Shown here: positions 125 through 38,100 of the stretch, piece after piece | Numbering within the stretch: the first letter of the stretch is position 1 | Layout: the number at the start of each line of letters is the position of its first letter | Assembly (NCBI GenBank): GCA_049969715.1 | Contig: JBMFOH010000018.1 | Span: 1 to 38,457 of the forward strand | Direction of reading: 5' to 3' | DNA from: JBMFOH01 sp049969715 [NCBI: bacterium] | GTDB lineage: Bacteria; DUMJ01 | DNA: 38,457 nt | Translations under genes and position numbers: made by a program | The notes under the pieces: generated by a model | Seen by the model: only the letters and a program-made list of their open reading frames with translations | Databases searched by the model: none | What the model was told of the DNA's origin: nothing

Positions 125-270
125 TATCTTTCCCTCCTTAAACTAAAGAATTACTACCCCCATAATACCTCAAAAAACGAAAAGGATTTATTTCTAAAAG
201 AATAATCTATGAAGTATTCAATCTCTCCATAATGCCAAGCCTCCTTTCCTCGAAGGATCTGGCATACATC

Positions 271-422
271 CTAATAGGCAGGTCTCCTGGCTTCCAGCAC
301 AAGTCCCACGCCTTCCCAGTTTCCCAGTGGCATCTTGTAGGACCCATACGCTGGTTACAGTAGCGGGACTGCAGCGGATTTTCACCGCTTTCCCTTTTAA
401 TCCCCTCAAGGGAACCTATTAG
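271..422 (-). promoter_or_regulatory. Cobalamin (B12) riboswitch
   Basis: Read on the minus strand, the segment shows the usual order of the cobalamin riboswitch. There is a GGGAAAGCGGTGAAAATCCGC-like core, CAGTCCCGCTACTG, then GCCACTGGGAA, then GAAGCCAGGAGACCTGCC. The closing P1 stem is eight perfect pairs between 415-422 and 271-278. It sits in the 5' leader of the minus-strand gene starting at 124. High cobalamin normally lowers expression downstream in this class. A hairpin at about 234-263 that includes an AAAGGAGG may be part of the expression platform. Confidence 0.95.
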
Positions 423-442
423 AACTATGCTTTTTGATTGAT

Positions 443-534: not shown

Positions 535-1164
535 CTAGATAATACCATTCTTTACCGCATACAAAACTGCTTCTGATCTGGTTTTTATATTTAACTTCTG
601 GAAGATATGTGAAATATGACTTTTAACTGTGCTTTCACTTAGGTATAACTCTTCTGCGATCTCCTTATTGGATTTTCCTCTAGCTATCTCTCTAAGAATA
701 TCTAATTCTCTAGAGGTAAGTTTATCACTTGTCTTTTGGCCTAAGGTTATCATCTTTAAGAGCTTACGAGATATATGTGGATTTATCATTGTAGTCCCCT
801 TGTAGACATTTTTTATAGCCTTAACTAGATTTTCTAGTGAGATATCTTTAAGGATATAACCAACTGCACCTGCCTGAAACATCTGTATAATAAGGTCATC
901 TTCCTCATATACAGAGATGGCAATAATCTGGATAGAAGGATTCTGATCTTTTATCACCCTTGTAGCTGATATGCCATCTATACCAGGCATCCTTATGTCC
1001 ATAAGGATTATGTCAGGCTTAAGTTGTTCTGCCTTCTCTATAGCCTCCTGCCCACTATAAGCCTTACCTACAACTTCCATGTCCTTTTCTCCTTCAAGTA
1101 GCTTGGCTATTCCGTCACATATTAGAGTCTGATCGTCCACGATAAGGACCTTTATAACCCCCAT
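535..1164 (-). CDS. NarL/LuxR-family response regulator
   Basis: A 209-residue two-component regulator. Residues 1-120 form the receiver (KVLIVDDQ with the acidic pair, phospho-acceptor Asp in LMDIRMPG, Lys in YILKDIS). The C-terminus is a LuxR-type helix-turn-helix (LTSRELDILREIARGKSNKE, then STVKSHISHIFQKL). The start is ATG 1164 because an AGGAGG site lies just upstream; longer versions reach back into the kinase gene. It follows the kinase by about 10 nt, so the two are co-transcribed and probably partners. The next operon upstream is the secretin locus, which makes that locus and its control region at 11.5 kb a natural but untested target. Confidence 0.93.
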   Translation of the reverse strand: MGVIKVLIVDDQTLICDGIAKLLEGEKDMEVVGKAYSGQEAIEKAEQLKPDIILMDIRMPGIDGISATRVIKDQNPSIQIIAISVYEEDDLIIQMFQAGAVGYILKDISLENLVKAIKNVYKGTTMINPHISRKLLKMITLGQKTSDKLTSRELDILREIARGKSNKEIAEELYLSESTVKSHISHIFQKLNIKTRSEAVLYAVKNGII

Positions 1165-1174
1165 CTGCTTCCTC

Positions 1175-2677
1175 CTATAAGGGAACATAAATCTCCACCT
1201 TAGTCCCTTTATGTGGGAAGCTTTCGAGTTTAAAAATACCACTCAAGGAGATTACTCTATCTTCCATTATTTTTATTCCAAAAGAGCTACTTTTGTTTTT
1301 ATACTGCTCATAGTCAAAACCCACCCCATCATCTTCAACTCTTATCCTTACTTCATCTTCTTCCACTTTACATTCCACATAAGCGTTATTAGCCATACTA
1401 TGGCGCCTTATATTTACTATCGCCTCTCTTACTATAAAAAAGAGATCTTCTTTAATACTCTTTGGTATTATTCTCTCATCTCCACTTAGGGTAAGGTTAA
1501 AGGTGATACCTGATCTTTTTTCTATCCCTTCTATATATTTCTTCAGGTCTTCGAAGAGACCCCCCTCCAAGACTATTGGCTTTTCTTCATAGATAACACA
1601 CCTAATATCATTTAATACACCTTTTAATAGGCTTTCCAATTCGTCTATTTCACTTAGGATATCTTTAGGTAACTTAAACTTCTTTATACACTCTATTCTC
1701 AAGATCCCTTCAGTCACACCCTGACAGATCCTATCATGAAGTATGTTAGTTATTCTGTCCCTCTCTTCCTGCCTTGTTATCTTTTTTACAGATAAGTAAT
1801 TTGAAAGATTCTTAATTATTAAAGTTACATCCCTGAGTAGGAGTTTCAACTTCTTTATCTCCCCAGGTTCAAGTAGTCCATTATCAAACCTCAGATAGAT
1901 AGCTCCAAATAGATCTTCCTTGCACAAAAGGGGAAAGGCTATAGAGTTCTCAACAGATATCTCTTCCTTATCTTTTAAGACTATACTAAAGAGATTATCT
2001 ATTTCACCTCTCAAATCTCGCGAAAATTCTTTAGGAAAGATATAGATTACTCTAATAGTATCTTCCTCATAAATTCCTATAGCTCCAAATGATGCCCTAG
2101 TAAACTTTATCAGACTCTGCAGTAGATATTTCATCATACAAGTTATACTTCTATATTTAGACATATTCCGTATTATCCTATATTGAGCTCTTGCTAGCTT
2201 AGTAGCATGTAAGTTTCTGTAAAAAGTCAAAATACCCTTCATAAAAGCAGTAAAGTATCTACTGAAGATAGTAGCTGTTTCTAAATCTTCTATAGAAAAT
2301 GCCTCTTTCCCAGGAGAACGGTTTATATTTATTACCCCAATTTTATTCTCCCCATCTATAATTGGTAATACAATGGAAGAACCAACATCACTTCTTGTGA
2401 GAGGACGTCCTAGAAGAATGTCACCGTTATTAAGTATAAGAGACACTCCATTCCTTAATGCATATCCAGCTATTCCTTCATCTAGTGATTCCTTTATGTC
2501 TTCCACCTCAGGAGAAATGCCTCTATAACTATTAACCTTAAGGACTTTTTCGATAGAATCCAACAACATAACAGAACCGCTATTAGCGTCCATTATATTT
2601 AAGATCATATCTAAAACTTGACTGGAGAGATTTCTAATCTCTCTATAGATTATACCCTCTACCTCCCCTATAAACAT
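1175..2677 (-). CDS. Cytosolic GAF-domain histidine kinase, NarX/DesK-type (HisKA_3)
   Basis: About 500 residues with no signal peptide or membrane segment. Two GAF-like sensor regions (about 1-160 and 165-290) precede a HisKA_3 dimerisation domain with the phospho-acceptor in ERDRITNILHDR (His about 314). An HATPase domain follows (N-box REAIVNIRRHS, G1 box VEDDGVGFD, G2 near SSSFGIKIMEDR). I place the start at ATG 2677; a TTG at 2683 is equally in frame and nearer the GGAGGAGG site, so the first two residues are uncertain. It is followed at once by its likely response regulator. The lack of a membrane anchor suggests an internal ligand or redox signal, which is inference. Confidence 0.92.
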   Translation of the reverse strand: MFIGEVEGIIYREIRNLSSQVLDMILNIMDANSGSVMLLDSIEKVLKVNSYRGISPEVEDIKESLDEGIAGYALRNGVSLILNNGDILLGRPLTRSDVGSSIVLPIIDGENKIGVININRSPGKEAFSIEDLETATIFSRYFTAFMKGILTFYRNLHATKLARAQYRIIRNMSKYRSITCMMKYLLQSLIKFTRASFGAIGIYEEDTIRVIYIFPKEFSRDLRGEIDNLFSIVLKDKEEISVENSIAFPLLCKEDLFGAIYLRFDNGLLEPGEIKKLKLLLRDVTLIIKNLSNYLSVKKITRQEERDRITNILHDRICQGVTEGILRIECIKKFKLPKDILSEIDELESLLKGVLNDIRCVIYEEKPIVLEGGLFEDLKKYIEGIEKRSGITFNLTLSGDERIIPKSIKEDLFFIVREAIVNIRRHSMANNAYVECKVEEDEVRIRVEDDGVGFDYEQYKNKSSSFGIKIMEDRVISLSGIFKLESFPHKGTKVEIYVPL

Positions 2678-2731
2678 TTTCAATTTTCCTCCTCCGAAAA
2701 GATAGGATTGACCCTATACTTTAATATCTAA

Positions 2732-2781: not shown

Positions 2782-4584
2782 TTACAATTTATACTCAACT
2801 CTAAAATACACACCCCTTCCATAAGAGGGGGTTATAATATTATCGAAATATTTAGAATCTCTATAATCATAGCCTATAGCAAAAGATAAAGATTTACTTG
2901 GTTTAAACTCTAATTCCATCCTAGCCGAAGAGAGTAATGTAATATCTAAAGTTCTAAAATATTCTAGTTTCAAAGTAGTGTAATCTGATATCTTATAACT
3001 AGCAGATAAATCTATGCCTATATCAGAATAAGACTTACCTTGAATACTGTCATTCATAAATAGTCCAAAGACCTTGCCTTTAAAAGACAAAGTTAAATAA
3101 GGATATGTCTCCTCCTCTATGGATATATTTAAGGCATCTATAGATAGATTTTTATCTCTAGCTAGCCTATAGGAGAGACCTGTTATGATATCAGATATTA
3201 GTCGATAGTTAAAACTCAAGCTTAAACTCTTTAGTCCATCTTGGATATAAATTCCATCTAGGAAGATCCTGCATCTACTATCTATTGGAAAACTACAGTT
3301 TAAATCTACCCCTGAGTTTACAGTCGTACCACTCAAGTTACTTGTTGAAATATCAATTACAGTGATTGGTCCACCAGAAATTACTAAACCCCTAGGATCT
3401 TCCCTTTTTACTCCCGGTAGCTTAGTCAAACTATAACTACTACTTTCTAAAACAGGCAGTACCCCCTTAACTAATTCTTCAGGCATCTCTCGAGCATACA
3501 TAAAGACGGTAAAAGAATCCCTTGACGATTCATCAGAACCTATGTATGGTTTGAAAACTCCAAATCTTTTAGATAATTCCCTATAATCAGTTACTCCACC
3601 GAGTATAGCTACATTATTAGAATCTAGAGACACCACTGTCTTAGTAGAGCCCAAAGATTTCTTCAGGTCTCCTTCTATATAACTAGCCAATAGCTCTAAC
3701 TCAAGCATTACTTTGTTATCTATAACCTCAGCTAGAATACCCATCTCTATATTCGAAGAAAAAGAGACTGTTGTAGTATAGTTTTCTATCACAAACTTTC
3801 TATAAGTCCTTTCCTCTAGTGAAAGACTAGAACTTTCTCTTTCTAGGACCAAGAACTTAAACCTAGCAGACCGCATAGCATTATCTTTACTCTTTAGGAT
3901 CTCCATAATAAGATCTATATTAGCAGTATTATTGTAAAAGTATCCAAGTTTTAAATCAGTAAAGTACATGCCAGTATCACTAACTCCAGAGTCCTCATCT
4001 AATTTCCATTCTACCTTTACTTCTGTGGGTAATAATCTACTTATATCACTGTAGGAGGTTTTGGCATAGAGAACATCTACATAGATAAGGCGTACTGGTT
4101 TATCTATCTCCTTAATCTTGGTCACTATATTATCTACCATAGAGTCTGGAGCAGTTATAGAAATTATATTCGATGAGCTATCAATCTTTATAAACTGAGA
4201 AAAAGAATCGCTTATCCTCTGCTTCATCGCATCTATAGATAGATACTTGGGTCTATAGAAGATGGTCTTTGATAAACCATTAAAAGTAAAGTTCTTTATA
4301 TCCGGAGAGCCTACCAGATAATATCCGTCCTTCTTGGCGAATACGTATCCATAATGGGATAAAAGTATATCCAAAGCTTTCTCCAAAGGAACATCCTTCA
4401 AGTCAGCAGACACAAAGCCTTCTACTGTATTATCAGCAACGATTACTACACCTGCTTGGCTTGAAACATCTCGGAGCGCCTGCCTGATATCCACATCTAC
4501 AAATACATTACTTACTAAGCTTTCAGCCATTACATCTAAAGGAAAGAAAAAAAAGATAAAAAAGACTATTAAAAACCTTCTCAT
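2782..4584 (-). CDS. Secretin-like outer-membrane protein with degenerate secretin domain and C-terminal beta-rich extension
   Basis: 600 residues. A signal peptide (MRRFLIVFFIFFFFPLDVMA) leads into an STN/AMIN-type periplasmic domain (DIRQALRDVSSQAGV, DNTVEGFVSADLKDVPLEKA) and an N1-like domain. This N-terminal half is closely paralogous to the gene just upstream, sharing for example the SPDIKN/LPDIKN segment. The secretin core is weak: only a GGVTDY remnant is recognisable and the usual VPILGDIPILGNLF block is absent. About 170 further residues of alternating beta-strand pattern end in YFRVEYKL, like an outer-membrane barrel terminus. The gap to the upstream secretin is only 9 nt, so they share an operon. 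It may be a partner or plug of the true secretin rather than a pore; that is inference. Confidence 0.75.
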   Translation of the reverse strand: MRRFLIVFFIFFFFPLDVMAESLVSNVFVDVDIRQALRDVSSQAGVVIVADNTVEGFVSADLKDVPLEKALDILLSHYGYVFAKKDGYYLVGSPDIKNFTFNGLSKTIFYRPKYLSIDAMKQRISDSFSQFIKIDSSSNIISITAPDSMVDNIVTKIKEIDKPVRLIYVDVLYAKTSYSDISRLLPTEVKVEWKLDEDSGVSDTGMYFTDLKLGYFYNNTANIDLIMEILKSKDNAMRSARFKFLVLERESSSLSLEERTYRKFVIENYTTTVSFSSNIEMGILAEVIDNKVMLELELLASYIEGDLKKSLGSTKTVVSLDSNNVAILGGVTDYRELSKRFGVFKPYIGSDESSRDSFTVFMYAREMPEELVKGVLPVLESSSYSLTKLPGVKREDPRGLVISGGPITVIDISTSNLSGTTVNSGVDLNCSFPIDSRCRIFLDGIYIQDGLKSLSLSFNYRLISDIITGLSYRLARDKNLSIDALNISIEEETYPYLTLSFKGKVFGLFMNDSIQGKSYSDIGIDLSASYKISDYTTLKLEYFRTLDITLLSSARMELEFKPSKSLSFAIGYDYRDSKYFDNIITPSYGRGVYFRVEYKL

Positions 4585-4593
4585 CTTTTCCCC

Positions 4594-5847
4594 TTATTTG
4601 GGAGATTCAAGGTCACTTACTATTTTACAGGTAAGAAGTATTACTATATCGCTAGTCTCCTTTGTTTTTCTCTTATTGGAAAACAAATTACCCAGGATAG
4701 GAATATCACCTAAGATAGGAACTTTATCTACAACTTCCCTTTCATTCTCCTGCTTCAAACCACCAATAACTACTGTCTGATTATCCTTTATCCTAATTGT
4801 AGTAGAAACTATTCTTCTTAATGCGGTAGGAGTCTCTACTCCCATCTGTATATCACTTACCTCTGTTGAGATAGTAAGAAACATATCATTAGGTTCATTG
4901 CTCTCTGACTCAATAACCCTAGGAAGGATCTTTAATATGATACCACCCTTTATCATCTGGAGGGTCCTAGTTAATGTTGTCTCCGTACCTGTAGTTATTA
5001 TCACATATTCTTCTCTACCTAGCTCTATGGATGCCTCTTTTCCATCTAACGTTGATATCTTTGGCGATGCCTTGACCTTTGCTTTTCCTTCTTCTACCAG
5101 TGCTTTTAACTTAAGAAGTATCTTCTGAGCGGAATCAAGGTTAAAAACGATACCACCGAGATAAGAATAATCAAGTCCTACTGTACCATTTGTTGTGGTT
5201 GGCTCTCCTATAGGAAATTTTATACCAAAACTTCCTTCTAGACTCTGTCCACCGCTTTCTGAAAGTTCTACTACCGCACCTTCAATAATTACCTGTTTTC
5301 TAGGTTTATCCAAATTAGTGATATCTCTTTTAATCCTCTCTATTATCTCTTTTGAAGATGTAACAGTTATTGTGTTATTTAAAGGGTCAACCTTTATGTA
5401 TGGGGTATAGAAATCACTCAATAATCCAGCAACAGACCTTGCATCAAGATACTTTATCTTTATATGTTCAGTGGTTGTAATACTATTAAAAGTAGCATTT
5501 TTTATATCTGGAAGTCCAACAAGGTAATAATCTCCCATCCACTTATATGTATACCCACCACCTGCTAGTACTATCTCTAGGGCTTTCTCTAGAGGAACAT
5601 TCTTAAGGTCTGCAGTTATCCAACCCTGAATTGTATTATCAGCAATAATGTTGACTCCAGCTTGAGCCGATATGTCCCTAAGGGCTTGACGAAGTTCCGT
5701 ATCAACAAAGACATTTGTTATAAGTATATTACTTGGGGATTTTTGAATTGTCTGTTGAAGCCCCTTTTCCATAACTGGGACATCAGCCATAACCTCTACC
5801 CAAGGCAGTAAAAATATTAGTAATAAAAGACATATTAACCTTCTCAT
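4594..5847 (-). CDS. PilQ/GspD-type secretin
   Basis: 417 residues with signal peptide (MRRLICLLLLIFLLPWVEVMA), an STN-type domain (ELRQALRDISAQAGVNIIAD), an N1 repeat (about 130-185, IKVDPLNNTITVTSSKE) and a complete secretin domain. The hallmark C-terminal block VPILGDIPILGNLF and a final beta-strand DIVILLTCKIV are present. Secretins form the gated outer-membrane channel of type II secretion and type IV pili; this one is short and lacks the AMIN repeats of a full PilQ. The start overlaps the stop of the two-unit Ig-like gene upstream (ATGA), which implies translational coupling. No pilotin, secretion ATPase or inner-membrane platform gene lies nearby. Confidence 0.9.
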   Translation of the reverse strand: MRRLICLLLLIFLLPWVEVMADVPVMEKGLQQTIQKSPSNILITNVFVDTELRQALRDISAQAGVNIIADNTIQGWITADLKNVPLEKALEIVLAGGGYTYKWMGDYYLVGLPDIKNATFNSITTTEHIKIKYLDARSVAGLLSDFYTPYIKVDPLNNTITVTSSKEIIERIKRDITNLDKPRKQVIIEGAVVELSESGGQSLEGSFGIKFPIGEPTTTNGTVGLDYSYLGGIVFNLDSAQKILLKLKALVEEGKAKVKASPKISTLDGKEASIELGREEYVIITTGTETTLTRTLQMIKGGIILKILPRVIESESNEPNDMFLTISTEVSDIQMGVETPTALRRIVSTTIRIKDNQTVVIGGLKQENEREVVDKVPILGDIPILGNLFSNKRKTKETSDIVILLTCKIVSDLESPK

Positions 5848-7475
5848 TCCTTGACCTCCTCTTTTTTCTCTATCTTAAATTCTTTTTCAAATGTTATCCA
5901 CCTCTTTTCTCCAAAATTCACCCTGACAGTTGCTATATACTCTCCGGATTCAAGAGGTTGTGTATAGAGAAGCACAAACTGTCTAGTACCATCGGGTAAG
6001 ACAACTACCTCCCCGTCAGAGAAGGGTATCTCTTCTACTATCACTTTAGACTTCTCTTTATCGGTCCCCTTTGTCTTTACTGTAAGGACTGCACTAGCCT
6101 TTAGATGGATATTTCCAGTATTTTTAAATAGAGTCAAAAACTGTGGGAAGGCAGATTCTCCAACCCCTACAAGTTTAATGTTCTGAACTTCTCCAGAGTA
6201 CTTTAAATCTCCAGGCACAGTAACTAGATACAAAGTATCCAAAGTAGTAACGAGTCCTTCTTTAGCGGATGGGTCTAAGACTTCAAATGAAACATTGGCA
6301 TATCTACCGCCAGGCTTTATATCTCTAGGGGGAGATATATTAACTCTTATAGAACGCCTCTCCTTTGATTTTAGAGTAAAACTATTAGTGTCTGTCTTTA
6401 TCCAATCTACACAGGAATATCTTGTATCTTCTGTCTCAATGATTTCTCCATCAGGTCCCAGGGCTACAGGCTTGGTATTAACCCTCACATTTACAGGTTT
6501 CTCTGTCATATTCTGGATGGTTATAACAGAACTCCTAAAAGAACCTGGAAGTGCATTTATTTCCTGAATAGAGGGTTCTGCCACAACATCTATACCTTTA
6601 CCTTCTGCTAATGTTCCAAGTTTAGCTTCACCTGTGGTAACACTAAATGGGATACTCGCCCTCAAAGAAGTTGGAACTCCATACCTTACATATGCATCTG
6701 CAATATACTCACCGGGAGGGAGAGGCCTTATAATACTTCTAAGTTCCGCTTCGGCACCGGGGAATAAAAGCCCCATACCTCCACCAAGAGGAATCTCTCT
6801 TATTCTCCTACCCAATCTTGACTTTATAACAAGTGTCCCTTTTGTCTGAACAGCAATGTTCCCTTGATTCTTAAGTAGAGCGGTAAACGCTATCATGTTA
6901 GTATTTTCCATCTTTACATTTTCTATACTAAATTCTTCCAGAGTTACTTTCCTATCAACCTTTCCTCCAGGGATTGTGACACTTACTATGCTTAGTATCT
7001 GTGTAGTAATAGTCAAACTTGCAATCCCTTCTTCACCTGTAGCAGATTTCTTTTCAGGTAAAAGCTCAAATAAAACTGCACAGTATCTACTTCCGTTTAC
7101 ACCTCTAGGAATAGTTACGGTACACTCAATAACCTTTCCTTCTTGACCCTTTAGTGTTACTTCGCTAGGATTTACCTTTACCCATTCGCTACAATCCCAA
7201 GGATTTATCTCATCTTTACCTAAGAGATCGAAATAGCCAGCTTTATTAACTCTTACAGGAATAGGTCTAATCCTAAAATTACCCACACTATTCGGGTCAC
7301 TTTCATTGACAAGTAGTATACTAAACTTCTTAGTTATTCCCGAATATAAAATTATCTCATTAAAAAGAGGAGTTACACTTATACTAACTGGTTGAGAAGG
7401 TAATTGCGATATAAAAGAAAAAAAGATTATTATAGTGACTAATATTACAAATAAAGCATAAGTCTTTTTACTCAT
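5844..7475 (-). CDS. Secreted/anchored protein with two tandem Ig-like units
   Basis: 543 residues. An N-terminal hydrophobic segment (FVILVTIIIFFSFI) serves as signal or anchor. The rest is an internal duplication: unit 1 at about 30-290 and unit 2 at about 300-535. Each unit carries a first beta-sandwich with a Cys-Trp motif (WDCSEWVKVNP; YSCVDWIKTDT) followed by a second sandwich that opens with LKNQGN or FKNTGN and closes with a PGEYIADAYV-like strand. The gene at 9725-10513 holds one such unit. The layout recalls the DUF916/DUF3324 pairing of WxL-interacting proteins and pilus-chaperone folds, but I cannot show homology by eye. A good GGAGG precedes the ATG, and the 3' end overlaps the secretin start. 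Confidence 0.7.
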   Translation of the reverse strand: MSKKTYALFVILVTIIIFFSFISQLPSQPVSISVTPLFNEIILYSGITKKFSILLVNESDPNSVGNFRIRPIPVRVNKAGYFDLLGKDEINPWDCSEWVKVNPSEVTLKGQEGKVIECTVTIPRGVNGSRYCAVLFELLPEKKSATGEEGIASLTITTQILSIVSVTIPGGKVDRKVTLEEFSIENVKMENTNMIAFTALLKNQGNIAVQTKGTLVIKSRLGRRIREIPLGGGMGLLFPGAEAELRSIIRPLPPGEYIADAYVRYGVPTSLRASIPFSVTTGEAKLGTLAEGKGIDVVAEPSIQEINALPGSFRSSVITIQNMTEKPVNVRVNTKPVALGPDGEIIETEDTRYSCVDWIKTDTNSFTLKSKERRSIRVNISPPRDIKPGGRYANVSFEVLDPSAKEGLVTTLDTLYLVTVPGDLKYSGEVQNIKLVGVGESAFPQFLTLFKNTGNIHLKASAVLTVKTKGTDKEKSKVIVEEIPFSDGEVVVLPDGTRQFVLLYTQPLESGEYIATVRVNFGEKRWITFEKEFKIEKKEEVKE

Positions 7476-7495
7476 CTTGTTACCTCCTTAAAATT

Positions 7496-7528
7496 CTTAA
7501 AAAATAGGGGCTCCTTTAGTGAGCCCCT
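7496..7528 (-). terminator. Rho-independent terminator between the small secreted proteins and the Ig-like/secretin genes
   Basis: A perfect 8-bp stem (AGGGGCTC at 506-513 with GAGCCCCT at 521-528 of the 7 kb region) is followed on the minus strand by ATTTTTT. It divides the minus-strand block into a promoter-proximal part (7548-11442) and a distal secretin part. Partial read-through would give more of the small proteins than of the secretin. Confidence 0.85.
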
Positions 7529-7547
7529 TGAAAAGCAGAACTACCTT

Positions 7548-8234
7548 TTATTTAAAATAGCCTGTCTCTGTATCTATCCAATCCTTAACTACTGTTAATG
7601 ATAGTGTTATCTCAGCATCATTCTGATATTCACATGCCCTTGTCTTAGGATAACCACCACTAGCGTCTTCTCTTACATTGATCTTTATCCACAGATAGCC
7701 TTCATTGTAGCAGAATGGAATAGTAGCAGAAGATGGTAACTCGGTTGCTTTGACCCAAGTAGTAGGTAATACAGGATTATTCGGATCATAGCTATAGGTA
7801 ATACCATACCATGTCTCTATAGCTTCACCAGAATTATTCTTTAGGTCATCAAATCCAGCTGCTGTTGCTAAAATATCTGCATTAGACTTGGTCCATCCCT
7901 TTATTGGTCCTGCAACATATATCCCTGGCTTTCTTACCTTGATGTTCCATCCTTGCGCTTCTAGCTCCCACTTTATCCATTGAGCGATAGATGCATGAGA
8001 AGCAACTCCTATCTCCCAGGTTTCTTTATTGCAGAAACCACTCTGTTGAGTCCCTTGATGCCAAGCCCTAGCATTAGCTGTAACATTACCCTTAGGTTCG
8101 GGGTACCAATTACCATTATCACCTAGTCTCCAAACTTGCGTCTCACCAAGTAAGGATAACTCATTTCCCCAAGCTAAACCTACTATACCCATCATCAAAC
8201 TTATTACTAGTAACACTAATAAACCCTTTCTCAC
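7548..8234 (-). CDS. Small secreted protein of the CNKxTW family, paralog A
   Basis: 228 residues with a signal peptide (MRKGLLVLLVISLMMGIVGL, cleaved near AWG). The mature part has a WRLGDNGNWYPEPKG N-terminal motif, the family hallmark SGFCNKETWEIGVASHASI, a central GFDDLKNNSGEAIETW stretch and a C-terminal WIKINVREDASGGYPKTRA segment. Conserved cysteines stand in GFCNK, PFCYN and RACEY. The start is GTG 8234, not the upstream GTG at 8243: it matches the paralog's MRK start and has proper spacing from AAGGAG. It is the last gene before a terminator. I recognise no family; it looks like an exported structural or adhesive subunit, which is inference. Confidence 0.75.
   Translation of the reverse strand: MRKGLLVLLVISLMMGIVGLAWGNELSLLGETQVWRLGDNGNWYPEPKGNVTANARAWHQGTQQSGFCNKETWEIGVASHASIAQWIKWELEAQGWNIKVRKPGIYVAGPIKGWTKSNADILATAAGFDDLKNNSGEAIETWYGITYSYDPNNPVLPTTWVKATELPSSATIPFCYNEGYLWIKINVREDASGGYPKTRACEYQNDAEITLSLTVVKDWIDTETGYFK
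7615..7677 (-). repeat. 63-bp segment identical to 8340-8402
   Basis: This part of paralog A, coding for the VREDASGGYPKTRACEYQND region, is identical base for base to 8340-8402 in paralog B. The flanking codons differ clearly. This points to recent gene conversion or strong constraint at the nucleotide level. Confidence 0.9.
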
Positions 8235-8266
8235 TTCAATCACACTCCTTTTATAAATTTTTAAAA

Positions 8267-8965
8267 CTACTCAGCAAAAATACCAAGCCCATTATTATCT
8301 AGCCACGGCTTGTACACTGTTACTGAAATCTTTACCGTGGCATCATTCTGATATTCACATGCCCTTGTCTTAGGATAACCACCACTAGCGTCTTCTCTTA
8401 CAACAATCTTTATCCATAGATGCGCATTGTGCTCGCAGTAAGGAACTCTAAGGGTCTCTTGGCCTAATGTCTTTGCCGGATACCAAACCATTGCTGAAGA
8501 AGGCATCTCTTCTCCAAAGGAATAGTATGTCTCTATAGCTTCACCAGAAGTATTCTTTAGGTCATCAAATCCAGAGAATGTTACTAAGACATCCGCATTG
8601 GACTTAATAGAACCAGAGATGCAATCTGCGATGTATGTCCCTGGCTTTCTCACATAGAAACGCCATCCTTGAGCATTAAGTTGCCACTTTATCCACTGAG
8701 CTATAGATGCATGTGTAGCAACATCTATAGTCCATGTTTCTTTATTGCAAAAACCACTTAGAGCTTCGCCCTGTTTCCATGCCCTAGTATTAGCAAGTCT
8801 ACTTCCTTTAGTTTCAGGAATCCAAGTCCACTGTCCTGTATATGGGTCTTTATCCCATTTCCAGACCTGAACTTCTTCACCAACATCCATTTCAGTTGCC
8901 CATGCTAGACTAACTATACCCATCAACAAACCTGCCACTAAGGTTATTAGTACAACTTTTCTCAT
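8267..8965 (-). CDS. Small secreted protein of the CNKxTW family, paralog B
   Basis: 232 residues starting at ATG 8965 behind AAAGGAGGTG; a longer in-frame version upstream has no ribosome site and would bury the signal peptide (MRKVVLITLVAGLLMGIVSL). The mature protein repeats the family pattern: VWKWDKDPYTGQWTWIPETK, SGFCNKETWTIDVATHASI, GFDDLKNTSGEAIETYY, and WIKIVVREDASGGYPKTRA. Cysteines occur in GFCNK, ADCIS, PYCEH and RACEY. It lies between the other two paralogs with short gaps. Function unknown; the aromatic-rich, tryptophan-rich, cysteine-bearing composition fits an extracytoplasmic beta-sandwich. Confidence 0.78.
   Translation of the reverse strand: MRKVVLITLVAGLLMGIVSLAWATEMDVGEEVQVWKWDKDPYTGQWTWIPETKGSRLANTRAWKQGEALSGFCNKETWTIDVATHASIAQWIKWQLNAQGWRFYVRKPGTYIADCISGSIKSNADVLVTFSGFDDLKNTSGEAIETYYSFGEEMPSSAMVWYPAKTLGQETLRVPYCEHNAHLWIKIVVREDASGGYPKTRACEYQNDATVKISVTVYKPWLDNNGLGIFAE
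8340..8402 (-). repeat. 63-bp segment identical to 7615-7677
   Basis: This is the second copy of the identical segment, in the C-terminal coding region of paralog B. Confidence 0.9.
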
Positions 8966-9069
8966 AATCTCACCTCCTTTCATTAGACTCTTCAAGATGA
9001 TCAACCTTTTATATAAACTGGTAGTAGTAATAGACTTACTACTACCTTCGTTAACCGCTATATTATTTT

Positions 9070-9735
9070 TCATAGTACAATCACCAATATTTCACCTGTA
9101 GTCACAGAATATCTAGTTTCACCAAGTGTATAATTCAATGTTGCACCTTTGTTTAGATAATATGTTCCAGGAGATGTATATTCCTGCTGACCTCCTGGAT
9201 TTAGTTTTGTATAGACCTTAAGTATTAATTCTGCGTCCCCAGAGAAGTTATTGCCTATTGTCCAAGTAATTGTAGTCTGACGTCCCGGACCTGGGGTATA
9301 ATTTACAGTTCCTCGAGAGACTTTTATAGGCGGATCTTGGATTCCAAGTTGTGGCTGAAAAATATCCGTGACAACTACATTATCTATAGGGATAGTAGAA
9401 GATAGTCTTATTATTATCTTCCATTCTGCGTACTGTTTAAGTGGGACTTTAAAGGTTCCATTAGGTAGTATCTCAATATTAGAAGTTATTGGTACTGCAA
9501 TCTTAGTAAAACTAAATTCAGGAACTTCTACCATTGCCTTCGTAGATACTTTTATCTCCCAGGTTCTCTTATTACAATAACCACTGACGCTCTCTCCTAG
9601 TGCCTCTGCAGAGCCATACTCATTAAGTCCTTCGAGTTTTACCCACTGACCAGTAGAAGCGTCATAGCGGTAGAGACTCATACCAAGTGTCAAAAACATA
9701 AAAAAGATTAATAAGAACTTTATGTTAAATCTCAT
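9070..9735 (-). CDS. Small secreted protein of the CNKxTW family, paralog C, with a different C-terminal domain
   Basis: 221 residues from ATG 9735. This start follows a GGGAAGGTGG site and opens a clean signal peptide (MRFNIKFLLIFFMFLTLGMS). The N-terminal part shares the family's YRYDASTGQWVKLEG and SGYCNKRTWEIKVSTKA motifs. From about residue 60 it differs from paralogs A and B: the segment VDVVVTDIFQP-like to the GRQTTITWTIGNNFSGDAELILKV part resembles the repeat domain often called DUF11, found on surface proteins. It overlaps the upstream Ig-like gene by 11 nt. The shared head and variable tail suggest a common export or docking module joined to different outer parts; that is inference. 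Confidence 0.75.
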   Translation of the reverse strand: MRFNIKFLLIFFMFLTLGMSLYRYDASTGQWVKLEGLNEYGSAEALGESVSGYCNKRTWEIKVSTKAMVEVPEFSFTKIAVPITSNIEILPNGTFKVPLKQYAEWKIIIRLSSTIPIDNVVVTDIFQPQLGIQDPPIKVSRGTVNYTPGPGRQTTITWTIGNNFSGDAELILKVYTKLNPGGQQEYTSPGTYYLNKGATLNYTLGETRYSVTTGEILVIVL

Positions 9736-10513
9736 AGCCCACCTTCCCAATAATTTTCTCTCCAATACAACCATCGCTACTGTAGTTTACTTTTAGGTAA
9801 GCTGTAAAATCTCCAACCTTTGGATGTCTCCAGACCGTACGTATTATTCTTCTCCCTTCAGGAAGTATTGTGCTTACATCTTTTAAAGGTATAGTCCTTA
9901 CCCTCTTACCTTGGGAATCTTTTATATTCACATTTCCTTCTATCTTTAGGTATGTATTCCCTAGATTCTTTAATACCATAGAAAAAACTACCTCTTCAGG
10001 TGTACTCTTCTCTATAGTAAAAGAGTCTAAAGCTAACTCTTTTCTCTCCGTAGATGGTATGGAAATAAAAATCAAAGTCCCTGTTCTAATCTTGACACCC
10101 ATACCACCTATAATTTCATCACTACTATTTATATCAAAGGTTACTGCTGAATATTTTCCCCCAGTAACGTCGGAAGGGACAGAGACTTTACCATTAACTG
10201 TATAGTTCTCCCTGGGAGAAATAGTAAAGTTTATATCTTCTAGAGTTATCCAGTCTTTACAGCTCCACTTATCGGGTTTATCAAGTATCACTAGTGTTCC
10301 ATTCTCTTCAAATGTAAATGGTGACACCTCACCTCTTACTCTCAATCTTAAAGTGCTTAGATTAGTAAGAGAGATAGAAAAACCATAAGTAGTCTTAGGG
10401 GCCAAAGAGAGCTCCATTATTGGAGGAGAGATGCTAACCTTTATCTCTTTTAATGGATCCTCTACCAGATATGATGAACTGAATAATCTAGTGCATATAA
10501 GTATCTTTTCCAT
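9725..10513 (-). CDS. One-unit Ig-like protein, paralog of the two-unit protein at 5844-7475
   Basis: 262 residues. The unit begins with VSISPPIMELSLAPKTTYGF, carries the Cys-Trp motif WSCKDWITLED, and continues with a second sandwich opening at LKNLGNTYLKIEG. It therefore equals one of the two units in the 543-residue paralog. The ATG shares one base with the upstream stop (TAATG), so translation is coupled. Its N-terminus (MEKILICTRLFSSSYLVEDP) is a poor signal peptide compared with its neighbours. Either export relies on another route, the start is wrong, or the 5' end was changed. Confidence 0.7.
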   Translation of the reverse strand: MEKILICTRLFSSSYLVEDPLKEIKVSISPPIMELSLAPKTTYGFSISLTNLSTLRLRVRGEVSPFTFEENGTLVILDKPDKWSCKDWITLEDINFTISPRENYTVNGKVSVPSDVTGGKYSAVTFDINSSDEIIGGMGVKIRTGTLIFISIPSTERKELALDSFTIEKSTPEEVVFSMVLKNLGNTYLKIEGNVNIKDSQGKRVRTIPLKDVSTILPEGRRIIRTVWRHPKVGDFTAYLKVNYSSDGCIGEKIIGKVGYEI

Positions 10514-11442
10514 TATTCCGACCCCTGGAATAAAAATTTTATGCTTCCTGCATATTCTCCAGCCAGGACAGACTCATCGGTCTTGAGTTTAAAACTCAGA
10601 GGTATTGTAAACTTCCCACTATTATTACCAGAGATTATAGTTCTGTAAGAATTAGATAACTGCAGATAGCTGACAGAATCTCCAACTTTAACATACAGAT
10701 AGTCTGGTGGAATAGGAGAAATTACTCTATTTTTATGTTTTTGAGATTCCTCATACTCTACTAGTTCCGTGGCGCTACACTGAACAGTCCAGTTCTTTTT
10801 ATTAGTCTTTACTTCTAAATTTAGAATCTCCCGAGACATCCACTCGCCAGGGTAGGGAACTAGAAAGGATAATGTACTTGGAGTTATATCCATGTAATTT
10901 TGCGGCTTTCTCGTTTCATTTCTAGGTACAGAAATTATAGTTACCGAAAATATTGGTTTTATTACTATAATAATAGGAATAGAAGCAAGTTTTACTATCT
11001 CTTCTTTTCCTTCCGAGATATATCTATAGCTAAAGATAAGATTACCTTGATATGTCCCGGGGTTATCTAACCAGCTAGGTATATATCTTATGTTTAATCT
11101 AGGAATAAAGACTGAAGCGTTCTTTACCCTCCTAGCAAGTCTTATCTTGCTAGTAAAAGGCGTATAGAAAGTATCAGTAGGATTTATACCACCTGCAAAC
11201 AGTATCCTCTCTTTAGGAATCCCTACTATATCCAATTCACAAAATAGTTCCCAGTCTTCTATATCTATGGAACCTGTTATATCTACCTGTTGTGTATAAA
11301 ATTTAGAGATATTATCTACTACAAATTCTATCTTAGGAGGGCTAAATGACATAAATGTTGATGCTCTATTTTGAGAAAAAGTACTTGGTATAATTAAGAT
11401 TATTAAACTGACAACCTCTAAAAATACCATCAATCTTTTCAT
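10513..11442 (-). CDS. Secreted beta-rich protein, first gene of the locus
   Basis: 309 residues from ATG 11442, chosen over an in-frame GTG at 11454 because it gives 5-nt spacing from GGTGGAGG. It has a signal peptide (MKRLMVFLEVVSLIILIIPS, cleaved near FSQ). The mature part seems to hold two beta-sandwich domains, each with one cysteine beside an aromatic residue (WELFCELDI; WTVQCSATEL). I recognise no family. It is the promoter-proximal gene of the minus-strand block and is coupled to the Ig-like protein behind it. A chaperone, adaptor or subunit role is possible from context only. Confidence 0.65.
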   Translation of the reverse strand: MKRLMVFLEVVSLIILIIPSTFSQNRASTFMSFSPPKIEFVVDNISKFYTQQVDITGSIDIEDWELFCELDIVGIPKERILFAGGINPTDTFYTPFTSKIRLARRVKNASVFIPRLNIRYIPSWLDNPGTYQGNLIFSYRYISEGKEEIVKLASIPIIIVIKPIFSVTIISVPRNETRKPQNYMDITPSTLSFLVPYPGEWMSREILNLEVKTNKKNWTVQCSATELVEYEESQKHKNRVISPIPPDYLYVKVGDSVSYLQLSNSYRTIISGNNSGKFTIPLSFKLKTDESVLAGEYAGSIKFLFQGSE

Positions 11443-11496: not shown

Positions 11497-11573
11497 AGTA
11501 TGGTTTTCTATCATACTTTTAGGTATTCTTTTGAATCATACTAAAGTATGATAAATTTGACCTTTAGTATGAG
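11497..11573. promoter_or_regulatory. Cluster of CATACT/AGTATG half-sites (probable operators)
   Basis: Five copies of the hexamer lie within 77 bp. AGTATG occurs at 11497, 11545 and 11566; CATACT at 11512 and 11537. Two of them form the inverted repeat ATCATACT-AA-AGTATGAT (11535-11552), and the octamer ATCATACT recurs at 11510. The cluster lies just ahead of the first gene of the secretin locus, in a gap otherwise empty of genes, so binding of a dimeric regulator is likely. Which regulator is unknown; the NarL-type protein at 535-1164 is one candidate. Confidence 0.5.
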
Positions 11574-11599: not shown

Positions 11600-11640
11600 C
11601 TATAAAAAGAATTAAGGTCCCGAGGAAACCCCGAGACCTT
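11600..11640 (-). terminator. Minus-strand terminator or attenuator hairpin ahead of the secretin locus
   Basis: The stem runs 614-625 with 629-640 (offset 11000) and has a 3-nt loop. Read on the minus strand it is a continuous 12-bp stem using two G-U pairs; on the plus strand those two positions are mismatches, so the signal is strand-specific. A T-rich stretch (AATTCTTTTT) follows. No minus-strand gene lies upstream, so it is either an attenuator in a long leader or the end of a small RNA. Confidence 0.6.
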
Positions 11641-11657
11641 ATCCCTAGAGAGGAGGA

Positions 11658-19082: not shown

Positions 19083-20193
19083 TTAGAAAAGTTTCCCAAA
19101 AGGGAAGGGTACTTTATCTCTATATCTTAGGGGGAAGTGGCGTATAGTCTCCTGAATCTGCTCTAGATAATGTCCCATGTTAGGGAATAAACAATCTCTA
19201 TTAGTGCATGAGCCAGGAATTCCATAGAGTTTACACCTCAGCTTATACATATTAGCCGTAGGTCCACCTACATCATTAATGGTTCCCTTAAAGTCATTAC
19301 GTTTAGTCAAATTATAAACCTCTTCTAGTATAGACTCTTCACTTCTAGAGATTACTTGCCATCCTTGATGAAGATTGAGAGAACAAAAGGGACAGCTTCC
19401 AAAACGTCCTCTATGAGAAGTAATAGATGTCATTACTGTTTCTAATGCAGGAACCTTCTCTTTATAAGATGGATGAGGAAATCTCTGAAACGGTAAAGAA
19501 TAGATAAGATCAAGGTCCCAAGTAGTATATACAGGCGGTGGGTTTTGAATAATATACCTTCTTCCATCTCTTTGCACCAAAATCTTTCTTTTTTTCATAC
19601 CATCCAATAGTAACATCTGAAAATCAAAGTATCTGTCTTTATCCTGAGATACTTCTTCAAATGGAGGAAGTATTATATATTCTTTACCCCTAAAAAGTTC
19701 ATCAAATTCTCTCTCATTAAGCACATAAACAATCCCAGGAATCTGGTATATCTCATACCAAGGCTTCTCCAATGCAAAGCTTTTAGCAATCTCTACTATC
19801 TGTTTCTCCCCCATCCCATAAACAATTAACTTTGCTCTTGAATCCACGATGATAGAGTGTCTTACACTATCCTCCCAAAAATCGTAGTGAGAAAATCTTC
19901 TCAAACTAGCCTCAAGTCCACCTAATATAATAGGAATATCCGGATATATCTCGTGGACAACATTTGAATAAACTACTGTGGCCCTATCAGGTCTTTTCCC
20001 AGGGATTCCACCTGGGGTATAGGCATCTCTTTCTCTTCTCCTCAAATCCAAAATATTCTAAGACTCTTCCAATTACAGCCGAGCCAAAAGATGGGTAATC
20101 AATATAGGCGTCACCTGTAACTACTATTACATCTAATTCCTTCCAGCCTCTTCTTTTAGCCTCTTCCAAAGTGATAGGTAAGAAATTGGACAT
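19083..20193 (-). pseudogene. ygiQ: YgiQ-family radical SAM protein, decayed
   Basis: Two overlapping frames make one damaged gene. The first (20193 to about 19990) gives the YgiQ N-terminus: [37 protein letters not shown]. The second resumes at [20 protein letters not shown]. Some 50-60 residues that normally lie between them are missing and the frame is shifted. In the radical-SAM motif the first cysteine is replaced: HRGRFGSCPFC against the usual HRGCFGGCxFC, a CGT codon in place of TGT. The C-terminus stops near residue 320 of the second frame, well short of the family length of roughly 600. Three independent lesions argue for a real pseudogene. Confidence 0.8.
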
Positions 20194-36784: not shown

Positions 36785-36799
36785 TTTTTTAGGGGTCAT
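36785..36799 (-). other. Homopolymer frameshift at the start of the mtaA-mtaC gene
   Basis: The coupled start (ATG at 36799-36797, GGAGGG upstream) is followed by ACC CCT and six A residues (36790-36785), and then runs into TAA. Seven A residues would keep the family-like N-terminus open into the long frame. Sequencing error, slippage-based switching or mutation are all possible. Confidence 0.7.
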
Positions 36800-38100
36800 T
36801 AATATCCCTCCAGTCCATAAGAATCTAACCTAAAGCTACTAACAGTGTCTCTGTACTTATCTATACAGCTTGATATAAATTCTTCCTGATCTTCTGGTAA
36901 TTCGTCTATAATCTTACCGCATTGGGCTAGGACCTCTTTTTCATGCGAAGAGAGCTTTAGTGTACCATTCTTTTGAGCCTTATCTAATTCATCATAAGCC
37001 TTTCTTAAGCCAAAAAGAGCCCTTTCATAATAGTTGTTACCCTCTACAATACTGGAAGCTATATTATATGCAATTCTGGGAGAAATAACGAAGGATTGTG
37101 GATCACGAAGCTCATCTGATGCAATAAAAATATCTCTTAACACCTTCTCATACCCTAATTTCAATGCTGTATTCATTTGAGCAACATCATACCCAAGAAT
37201 CTCAGTAAAAACAGCTGGGGTTTTACCACCAAACACCTCGGCATACTGAACGGCTTCATTGCTCCATAGGTCACATACTGCTGCAGATATATTTCCCATC
37301 AAGTCAGAGTGTGCACAGGCACAACTCTTCCCTTCCATAGATATCGGATAACCAGTAATAGCCTTTATTATAGTCCCCTCATATCCACAGTCCTTATCTG
37401 GACCTTTAGCTCCCATATCGAAGGCTACTAAAGACCTGGCAGCTCCTATTGCCCTTATTAGAGCTGCAAATATATGAGAGAGTTCATTACTCGTATATCC
37501 TCCTGCTAAAAACATTGCAGAATTTGAGTGAGCACAGTCTGTATCTCCTCCAGGGATAATATTATAGTCTTTGGCTATCTTCACAATATCTCTCCAAAGA
37601 TATTCCATATCTAGAGAACCTAAGATTCCTACCGCAAAAAGACAGCCTATAAGGTCCTGCCTAGTAACTGCATAGTTAAAGACTTCTTTCCCACCGGTAG
37701 ACTCTATAGATAAGATATCTGCACCAGCATCTGCTGAAGCTACGAAATTCTCTATAATCTTTTCATACTCTTTTGAATTCCTATAACCATTTTCTGCCTT
37801 TCTTATATCTGCAACCGTAACTCTTACCGCTCCCCTAATGCCGAAATTGTCATAGTATTCCTTCAAAAGCCATTTCGTCATATGAGTAATCTCTCTTCCT
37901 TTAAAAAGAATTTTCCCCTTAGTAACTTTATATCTAGGATGCCCCATAAGGGTGTAAGCTAATGTACTTTTACCTGTACCATTCGGTCCCATCAGGGCAT
38001 AAACCTTACCCTTTTCTATCTTAAGGTTAATCCCCTTAAGGATCTCTTTGTCCTCAACATCTACATATAAATCTTCTATATTAAGCAACTCTTCCTCCAT
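36799..38100 (-). CDS. Chimera: SufC N-terminus joined to methanol:corrinoid methyltransferase MtaB
   Basis: 433 residues. Residues 1-74 match the start of SufC, the Fe-S assembly ATPase: LKGINLKIEKGKVYALMGPN with Walker A GPNGTGKST, and HPRYKVTKGKILFKGREI. There is no Walker B or signature motif. From about residue 75 the sequence is MtaB, with zinc ligands Glu in SIESTGGKEV, Cys in GDTDCAHSN and Cys in CACAHSDLMGN. The first 100 or so residues of MtaB, including the first barrel strand, are missing. The join is in frame with no linker. It is transcribed from the sufC-type promoter and coupled to the MtaA-MtaC gene. Confidence 0.85.
   Translation of the reverse strand: MEEELLNIEDLYVDVEDKEILKGINLKIEKGKVYALMGPNGTGKSTLAYTLMGHPRYKVTKGKILFKGREITHMTKWLLKEYYDNFGIRGAVRVTVADIRKAENGYRNSKEYEKIIENFVASADAGADILSIESTGGKEVFNYAVTRQDLIGCLFAVGILGSLDMEYLWRDIVKIAKDYNIIPGGDTDCAHSNSAMFLAGGYTSNELSHIFAALIRAIGAARSLVAFDMGAKGPDKDCGYEGTIIKAITGYPISMEGKSCACAHSDLMGNISAAVCDLWSNEAVQYAEVFGGKTPAVFTEILGYDVAQMNTALKLGYEKVLRDIFIASDELRDPQSFVISPRIAYNIASSIVEGNNYYERALFGLRKAYDELDKAQKNGTLKLSSHEKEVLAQCGKIIDELPEDQEEFISSCIDKYRDTVSSFRLDSYGLEGY

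What the first reader, a model, noticed from the sequence alone, without database searches (positions are those of the whole stretch)
2782..11442. Secretin-linked surface locus without ATPase: a candidate undescribed export or assembly system
Eight consecutive minus-strand genes, most with signal peptides, combine a full secretin, a secretin paralog with a degenerate core, two Ig-like proteins built from one shared unit, three small proteins with a common SG[FY]CNK[ER]TW head, and a further beta-rich protein. Start-stop overlaps couple several of them. No secretion ATPase, platform, prepilin or peptidase gene occurs. Seen directly: gene order, signal peptides, motifs. Known: secretins are outer-membrane channels and Ig-like periplasmic proteins often act as chaperones. 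Inferred: the small proteins are substrates, the Ig-like proteins escort them, and the secretin lets them out.
Basis: partly seen in the sequence, partly recalled or inferred. Interest (0 to 1): 0.85.

Follow-up and report, generated by a model that had tools for sequence, protein, structure and literature searches.

The report
Chaperone-and-secretin surface protein export locus
A conserved set of bacterial genes looks like a machine that folds small surface proteins with helper proteins and passes them out through its own dedicated outer-membrane ring instead of the usual fibre-assembly pore; this is inferred from sequence and still needs experiments.

Summary
In detail: eight minus-strand genes (2782-11442) plus a two-component pair. 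The three genomes held from the phylum of the nearest relatives carry the locus (in one it is split by contig ends). Its core, subunit(s) - Ig-like F - short secretin G - a further gene with an H-like C-terminus, recurs in other lineages, chiefly one that I infer to be Thermotogota: in 20 of 20 further regions fetched (19 from that search) a G-type secretin lies within 2.5 kb of F; 17 of 20 have D/E-type genes. Seven G secretins form one clade apart from seven other secretins (100/99). The F family is related to WxLIP (PDB 9i1y, E 8e-10) and its unit to the pilus chaperone EcpB (E 7e-6). A low-confidence model of D resembles chaperone-usher pilins (CsuA/B, Z 8.1). No usher or ATPase gene is in the locus, but all six genomes tested hold T2SSE-family ATPases. 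Best reading: strand-donating chaperones escort incomplete beta-sandwich subunits to a dedicated secretin that takes the place of an usher. Transport and filament formation are inferred. It is a candidate answer to the reported absence of known secretion systems in Thermotogae (PMC4793230).

The parts
10513..11442 (-). Gene A, 309 aa, signal peptide, by inspection two related domains, no Pfam match; profile-matched by two shorter neighbouring genes in lineage G341
   Evidence: A profile hits L086 ORFs at E 4.6e-9 and 1.5e-8
9725..10513 (-). Gene B, 262 aa, one Ig-like (WxLIP/EcpB-like) unit; no signal peptide in this phylum
9070..9735 (-). Gene C, 221 aa, signal peptide, SGYCNKRTW head, different body; candidate subunit
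9559..9585 (-). SGYCNKRTW motif of C
   Evidence: sequence
8267..8965 (-). Gene D, 232 aa, signal peptide, CNK head; candidate fibre/layer subunit, pilin-like low-confidence model
8732..8758 (-). SGFCNKETW motif of D
   Evidence: sequence
7548..8243 (-). Gene E, 231 aa, GTG start, paralogue of D (57% identity)
8016..8042 (-). SGFCNKETW motif of E
   Evidence: sequence
5844..7475 (-). Gene F, 543 aa, signal peptide, two Ig-like units; relative of WxLIP; candidate periplasmic chaperone
4594..5847 (-). Gene G, 417 aa, short secretin (N0-N1-core), start overlaps the stop of F
2782..4584 (-). Gene H, 600 aa: N0-N1 (weak Pfam matches), diverged secretin core, C-terminal part with outer-membrane-strand periodicity
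1175..2683 (-). GAF-domain histidine kinase; a corresponding ORF follows H in three relatives
535..1188 (-). Response regulator with LuxR-type HTH; a corresponding ORF in three relatives
11535..11552 (.). Palindrome ATCATACTAAAGTATGAT about 100 bp upstream of A; identical in L047, partly kept in L001 and L002; candidate regulator site

Best explanation
The locus encodes a chaperone-dependent surface-protein export and assembly pathway whose outer-membrane exit is a dedicated short secretin rather than an usher. C, D and E are exported by Sec and are incomplete, pilin-like beta-sandwich subunits with a conserved N-terminal strand of alternating hydrophobic residues. F (and B) are two-domain Ig-like proteins that stabilise the subunits by donating a strand and hand them to G, which forms the channel. 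H, a secretin-like ring subunit with its own C-terminal barrel, is a partner or gate at the same site. Outside the cell the subunits join by swapping strands into a fibre or layer. The two-component pair probably regulates the operon. Shown: gene content, conservation, homologies. Inferred: strand donation, transport, filament formation, regulation.
For: Conserved linkage: window and three relatives; G341 with order A-A-B-D/E-F-x-G, F adjacent to G in G195, F and G about 1 kb apart with one small secreted ORF between in G275; 20 of 20 further regions have a G-type secretin within 2.5 kb of F, 19 of 20 with a gap or overlap of at most 35 bp, 17 of 20 with a D/E-profile gene. Seven G-type secretins are one side of a branch against 7 others (100/99); F and G distances correlate (Mantel r 0.956, 0 of 2000 permutations). 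F family: WxLIP structure 9i1y E 8e-10, PF06030 in 14 and fn3_5 in 15 of 18 members at E<=0.01; a 40-unit Ig alignment against EcpB E 6.8e-6, prob 84.6, EcpB residues 34-202 of 222, with ykgM, matA, fimE at E 0.47-0.67. In PMC10599100 section 2.4 an AlphaFold complex has a WxLIP strand completing the WxL sandwich. D model: best match CsuA/B Z 8.1; by title 38 of 50 rows are subunits of chaperone-usher pili or archaeal pili, threads or cannulae. H: beta alternation z 2.1-4.0 in 21 of 22 complete C-termini; the last residue is F/W/Y in 15 of 17 complete genes that follow G in the 20 regions, against 37 of 300 ORFs overall, these included.
Against: The D model is weak (pLDDT 57.6, pTM 0.50), no Foldseek hit reaches E 1e-3 and its top rows are lambda tail fibres, Z near 8 can be a common arrangement (tool note), and the 50 rows are redundant (many entries of type 1, P and CFA/I pili). 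No sequence match of D/E to a solved structure or pilin. FimC gave E 0.052, no better than FimG 0.054. B lacks a signal peptide in 4 of 4 species, which a periplasmic chaperone needs. All 6 genomes tested have T2SSE ATPases and at least one further secretin, so the pathway could borrow type IV pilus power. The H model failed (pLDDT 32). Only 7 of 18 genes that follow G in the 20 regions match the G-family profile at E<1e-3; the others are H-like by place and C-terminus alone. In the window's own phylum only 1 of 4 H proteins ends in an aromatic residue.
Confidence: 0.58

Rival explanations
1. G is an alternative secretin of the type IV pilus, and C/D/E/F are accessory proteins or cargo exported by the pilus machinery (PilB/PilT/PilC). 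(The rivals are not mutually exclusive, so the odds need not sum to one.)
For: A pilC-like gene lies about 1.6 kb, and pilT and pilB 3-5 kb, beyond the response-regulator gene in 3 of 3 relatives; 6 of 6 genomes have T2SSE ATPases (the control rings in 14 of 14 genomes); G scores best with the PilQ model among NCBIfam secretins, below its cut-off.
Against: G001 has its own PilQ beside prepilin-like and pilMNOP-like genes, and the G-type secretins form a separate clade. No PilB- or PilC-profile ORF at E<1e-10 lies in the G341, G195 and G275 regions L086, L088, L095; in the 20 further regions the only PilB-profile hit at E<1e-3 is a 102-aa ORF. In the relatives the pil genes run convergent to the operon. 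By inspection the subunits have Sec, not prepilin, leaders.
Confidence: 0.2
2. A WxL-like surface complex or envelope tether: F binds the small proteins and peptidoglycan, and G/H are structural rings or anchors (for example of a toga-like sheath); nothing is exported through them.
For: F is closest to WxLIP, described as a peptidoglycan-side binder of WxL domains (abstract). The largest group of relatives is inferred to be Thermotogota, which have a sheath-like toga (PMC4793230, PMC5637354, passages).
Against: No WxL-domain match in 18 D/E members; window F has no C-terminal membrane helix (sequence). G keeps a full secretin core, which a mere tether would not need.
Confidence: 0.17
3. A protein-export pathway in which D/E are secreted soluble proteins (binding proteins or adhesins) rather than fibre subunits.
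For: Signal peptides and conserved cysteines; weak D model; resemblance to hexosaminidase and GH123 chains in 9 of 50 rows, plus CEP192 in one.
Against: 38 of 50 rows are filament subunits by title; C and D/E share mainly the N-terminal head, as expected for a shared assembly strand.
Confidence: 0.15

Closest known systems
Chaperone-usher pathway, alternative (EcpB) and archaic (CsuC-CsuA/B) branches
   Same: Ig-like periplasmic proteins whose unit profile matches EcpB; subunit model nearest CsuA/B; chaperone-like, subunit-like and outer-membrane exit genes adjacent
   Different: No usher; the exit would be a secretin plus an H protein; F carries two tandem units; FimC not matched
WxL / WxLIP (DUF916-DUF3324) clusters of Gram-positive bacteria
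   Same: F family is a sequence relative of WxLIP; small secreted partners beside it; strand insertion predicted for WxLIP
   Different: No WxL domain found, no membrane helix on window F, secretin present
Type II secretion / type IV pili (GspD, PilQ)
   Same: G is a PF00263 secretin with N0-N1 domains
   Different: No ATPase, platform, prepilin or peptidase among the eight genes; G-type forms a separate clade from PilQ
   Same: Homologous Ig unit near small secreted genes; 4 of 11 of the large proteins tested match the secretin-type N domain PF13629, 2 of them over its cut-off
   Different: Large protein instead of a secretin: of 27 regions examined 23 had an Ig hit at E<1e-8; 13 of these have a gene of 770 aa or more among the next three downstream, 3 have a G-type secretin, none both
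TasA/TapA and archaeal filaments (AbpA, Saci_0406, cannulae)
   Same: Archaeal ones are among the structural matches of D; TapA donates a strand as a chaperone (PMC10151520, passages)
   Different: No sequence match; that these systems lack a secretin is recalled

Membership tests
Chaperone-usher pathway | usher (PF00577-type) gene in the locus | tested here: not met
   No usher match in any of the eight genes in Pfam or NCBIfam at E<=1
Chaperone-usher pathway | PapD/EcpB-like chaperone | tested here: inconclusive
   EcpB hhalign prob 84.6, E 6.8e-6; FimC E 0.052; PDB EcpB E 0.087
Chaperone-usher pathway | subunits with incomplete Ig fold and N-terminal donor strand | tested here: inconclusive
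   D model pLDDT 57.6; CsuA/B Z 8.1, rmsd 2.6, 113 residues
T2SS / type IV pilus | secretin | tested here: met
   PF00263 E 1.9e-37, 128.9 bits against a cut-off of 27.5
T2SS / type IV pilus | cognate ATPase and platform protein in the locus | tested here: not met
   None among the eight genes; none at E<1e-10 in L086, L088, L095; 20 further regions: only a 102-aa PilB-profile hit
T2SS / type IV pilus | machinery elsewhere in the genome | tested here: met
   T2SSE in 6 of 6 relatives' genomes, but also in 14 of 14 controls; no whole genome is held for the window
T2SS / type IV pilus | substrates with prepilin (class III) leader | tested here: not met
   C, D, E have Sec-type leaders by inspection only
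WxL cluster | WxLIP PGBD (PF06030) | tested here: met
   14 of 18 F members at E<=0.01; window F itself below the curated cut-off, 21.6 against 27.3 bits
WxL cluster | WxL domain in partner proteins | tested here: not met
   0 of 18 D/E members; window C, D, E none
WxL cluster | C-terminal membrane helix on WxLIP | tested here: not met
   Window F ends ...EKKEEVKE, no hydrophobic segment, by inspection
Export of C/D/E through G | secretin-dependent surface localisation | not testable with these tools
   needs experiment

The most novel reading that the evidence does not exclude
A distinct class of outer-membrane export pathway: strand-donating, WxLIP/EcpB-type chaperones deliver strand-exchange subunits to a dedicated secretin, without its own ATPase and with a secretin-barrel hybrid partner. 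It is present across Thermotogota and several other lineages, and it builds a surface fibre or sheath component in bacteria reported to lack all known protein secretion systems.
Probability: 0.42. Interest if true: 0.92.

Novelty: new variant of a known kind. Interest (0 to 1): 0.8.

Why it matters
Abby et al. 2016 (PMC4793230, passages read) report that among diderm clades only the Thermotogae lacked all the protein secretion systems they searched for, and suggest that systems adapted to the toga envelope may have evolved. If the clade inferred here is Thermotogota, this locus is a concrete, conserved candidate with a dedicated secretin, and it makes that question testable by gene deletion. 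It would also suggest that usher-like barrels and secretins are alternative exits for chaperone-escorted subunits, which fits the secretin-type N domain found in 4 of 11 of the large proteins that accompany the same Ig unit elsewhere. It could change the meaning of secretins annotated as PilQ in such genomes.

Tried and rejected
H structure prediction (A13, three rows) gave pLDDT 32 and was discarded. The viral structure library gave one hit under E 1e-3, an unnamed protein, not informative. Scans of viral contigs with D/E and with G found no relative. PDB sequence searches with D/E, C and A found nothing at E<=5, the expanded D/E profile nothing at E<=10, and a three-row F profile only MukF at E 0.05-0.11. 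A programmed frameshift joining A and B was considered to explain B's missing signal peptide; by eye the junction DNA of four species shows no shared slippery run, only a shared stop-start overlap. Direct homology of H to the 396-aa third gene of L088 failed (hhalign E 0.19); that gene matches the G family weakly (E 0.0017, prob 15). D/E profile against FimA, FimG and EcpA: no match. PF06030 as a genome search was insensitive: 4 of 8 genomes that all have F.

Papers: the ten searches listed no title or abstract start that describes this system; only open-licence full text was searched, and lists were cut at 5-15 entries. Abby 2016, the RQ7 genome paper and the TapA paper were seen as passages, the WxLIP paper as abstract and section 2.4, all others as listings.

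Rows dropped: 4 of 27 regions had no Ig ORF at E<1e-8 (L050, L053, L055, L099). L050 has an Ig hit that my ORF picker missed and a secretin about 6 kb away; that secretin was placed among the seven others in the tree. In some searches the truncated L169 gene was left out of the H counts.
Full report
Observation. The eight genes A-H lie as described. G is a short secretin: PF00263 and Secretin_N over their cut-offs, the N0 (STN) match just below (solved PilQ and GspD relatives). H aligns with G through N0-N1 and a diverged core and then continues; it is 600 aa against 417. F contains two copies and B one copy of an Ig-like unit. C shares its head, D and E share head and body. By inspection seven of eight carry Sec signal peptides; B does not, in this and three related species, whereas the B-like protein of G341 does (sequence). 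A GAF-domain histidine kinase and a response regulator follow H.

Conservation nearby. A genome-contig scan with D/E found two MAG loci that carry all eight genes and the two-component pair in the same order; H is 68-69% and F 80-82% identical to the window. The phylum that the tool gives for the first relative (G001) holds three genomes, and all three have F and H. In the third the locus is split across contig ends, so D/E are not seen there (the first D/E profile counted 2 of 97 genomes). No whole genome is held for the window, so its place in that phylum is inferred from identity. About 1.6 kb past the response regulator, after two other ORFs, these three species have a pilC-like gene followed by pilT and pilB, in convergent orientation; the window shows no such neighbour before its edge. 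G001 also has a separate PilQ with prepilin-like and pilMNOP-like genes by inspection.

Conservation far away. An Ig-unit profile hit 41 of 386 genomes at E<=1e-4. In 20 regions requested from these (L086-L105, one of them a 237-bp contig end) an F-type gene lies near a G-type secretin in three further lineages, G341, G195 and G275; G341 keeps the order A, A, B, D/E (E 8.8e-24), F, extra gene, G (E 3.2e-95). Three F-profile searches at E<=1e-10 on overlapping sets hit 37 of 386, 75 of 390 and 37 of 386 genomes. I fetched 20 further regions, mostly the strongest hits and so not a random sample. All 20 have a G-type secretin within 2.5 kb of F, 19 of them with a gap or overlap of at most 35 bp (in L170 and L171 it is cut by a contig end; in L172 it is 2.5 kb away on the other strand); 17 have at least one D/E-profile gene at E<1e-3, some of which lack the CNK motif; 18 show a further same-strand gene after G. 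Nineteen of the 20 come from the search around G195. I infer that this clade is Thermotogota. The RQ7 genome paper lists two secretins for T. maritima, TM0088 and TM1117, with pilC as TM_0094 (PMC5637354, table passage). From recall of neighbouring sugar-transport genes TM1117 may be the G homologue; this was not tested.

One system, not chance neighbours. Seven G-type secretins form one side of a branch with support 100/99 against seven other secretins, six of them from the same genomes; some end branches are long, and the root is not inferred. F and G distances over 18 loci correlate with r 0.956; none of 2000 permutations reached it. Shared ancestry of the hosts contributes to this.

What the parts are. 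F: the 18-member family profile finds the solved WxLIP sequences 9i1y (E 8e-10) and 9i25 (E 1e-9), then EcpB 5dfk (E 0.087); fn3_5 matches 15 and PF06030 14 of 18 members. A 40-unit alignment matches EcpB with E 6.8e-6 (prob 84.6); ykgM, matA and fimE do not match, nor do FimA, EcpA, FimG (0.054) and FimC (0.052), and FimD gave a short weak match (E 0.008 over 30 columns). In PMC10599100 section 2.4 a WxLIP strand is predicted to complete the WxL sandwich. D/E: the AlphaFold model from nine rows has pLDDT 57.6. Foldseek gave nothing at E<=1e-3; its first two rows are the lambda tail fibre, then CfaB, AbpA and FimG, with unrelated proteins among the rest. The second-look aligner placed CsuA/B first (Z 8.1, rmsd 2.6, 113 residues). 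By title 38 of its 50 rows are subunits of chaperone-usher pili or of archaeal pili, threads or cannulae (that all of these assemble by strand exchange is recalled), 9 are glycosidases, one is CEP192, and two I could not classify; the rows are redundant. In the 18-row alignment QW, PGxY, SN and a late Tyr are invariant, and the CNK cysteine is present in 16 of 18. The mature N-terminus keeps an alternating hydrophobic strand, as in VQVWKW or LTVWKQ, in most D/E and in C, which would suit a donor strand; that is inference. H: among 17 complete genes that follow G in the 20 regions, 15 end in F, W or Y, against 37 of 300 ORFs overall, these included; 7 of the 18 such genes match the G-family profile. 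Beta alternation in the last 170 residues is z 2.1-4.0 in 21 of 22 complete proteins (the other 1.0), against -1.3 to 1.8 for their N-terminal parts and 0.5-1.2 for three control stretches. Pfam finds the secretin STN domain in 6 of 14 H-type proteins.

Context. Of 27 regions examined 23 had an Ig-type ORF at E<1e-8. In 13 of these one of the next three same-strand genes encodes 771-1070 aa (12 regions) or 1618 aa (one); 3 have a G-type secretin; none has both, and 7 have neither, some of them cut by contig ends. Of 11 such large proteins tested, 10 carry SdrD_B and 4 match a secretin-type N domain PF13629, two of them over the curated cut-off. This suggests two alternative exits for one chaperone module.

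Mechanism. Shown: the modules and their linkage. Inferred: strand donation by F/B, passage through G, a role for H as a gate or second ring, and assembly outside. Power may come from strand exchange alone, as in chaperone-usher systems (established principle), or from a pilus motor; each of the six genomes tested has T2SSE-family ATPases, as do 14 of 14 controls.

Verdict. A real and conserved gene set, not described in the papers that I searched. It is likely to work like a chaperone-usher pathway but is not filed as a member of it, since no usher is present; nor of type II/IV systems, since no ATPase or platform is in the locus; nor of the WxL cluster, since no WxL domain was found.

Noticed in passing
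window 36799-38100: ORF joins an ABC-transporter N-terminus (residues 21-77) to MtaB from profile position 96 on; looks like a chimeric assembly or a gene fusion.
   Followed up: no
window 260-434, minus strand: Cobalamin riboswitch (RF00174, 123 bits) with no gene of its own before the window edge; relatives have other ORFs at this place.
   Followed up: no
window 11613-11641, minus strand: Terminator-like hairpin (13 pairs, T-run) about 170 bp upstream of A, a similar one visible in L001; possible leader, attenuator or small RNA.
   Followed up: partly
window 9725-10513: B has no signal peptide in 4 of 4 species of this phylum although its N-terminus MEKILICTRLF is conserved; unexplained.
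   Followed up: partly
window 19083-20051: A radical-SAM-like (YgiQ-type, by recall) ORF looks shortened, 322 aa.
   Followed up: no
L163:12262-12567: A 102-aa ORF matches my two-sequence PilB profile at E 2.5e-8; too short to be an ATPase.
   Followed up: no
L054, L055 (Deinococcus plasmids): Adjacent genes for a small secreted protein, an Ig-like protein, a ~190-aa protein and a ~1015-aa protein, all annotated hypothetical; in L054 the large one carries SdrD_B.
   Followed up: partly
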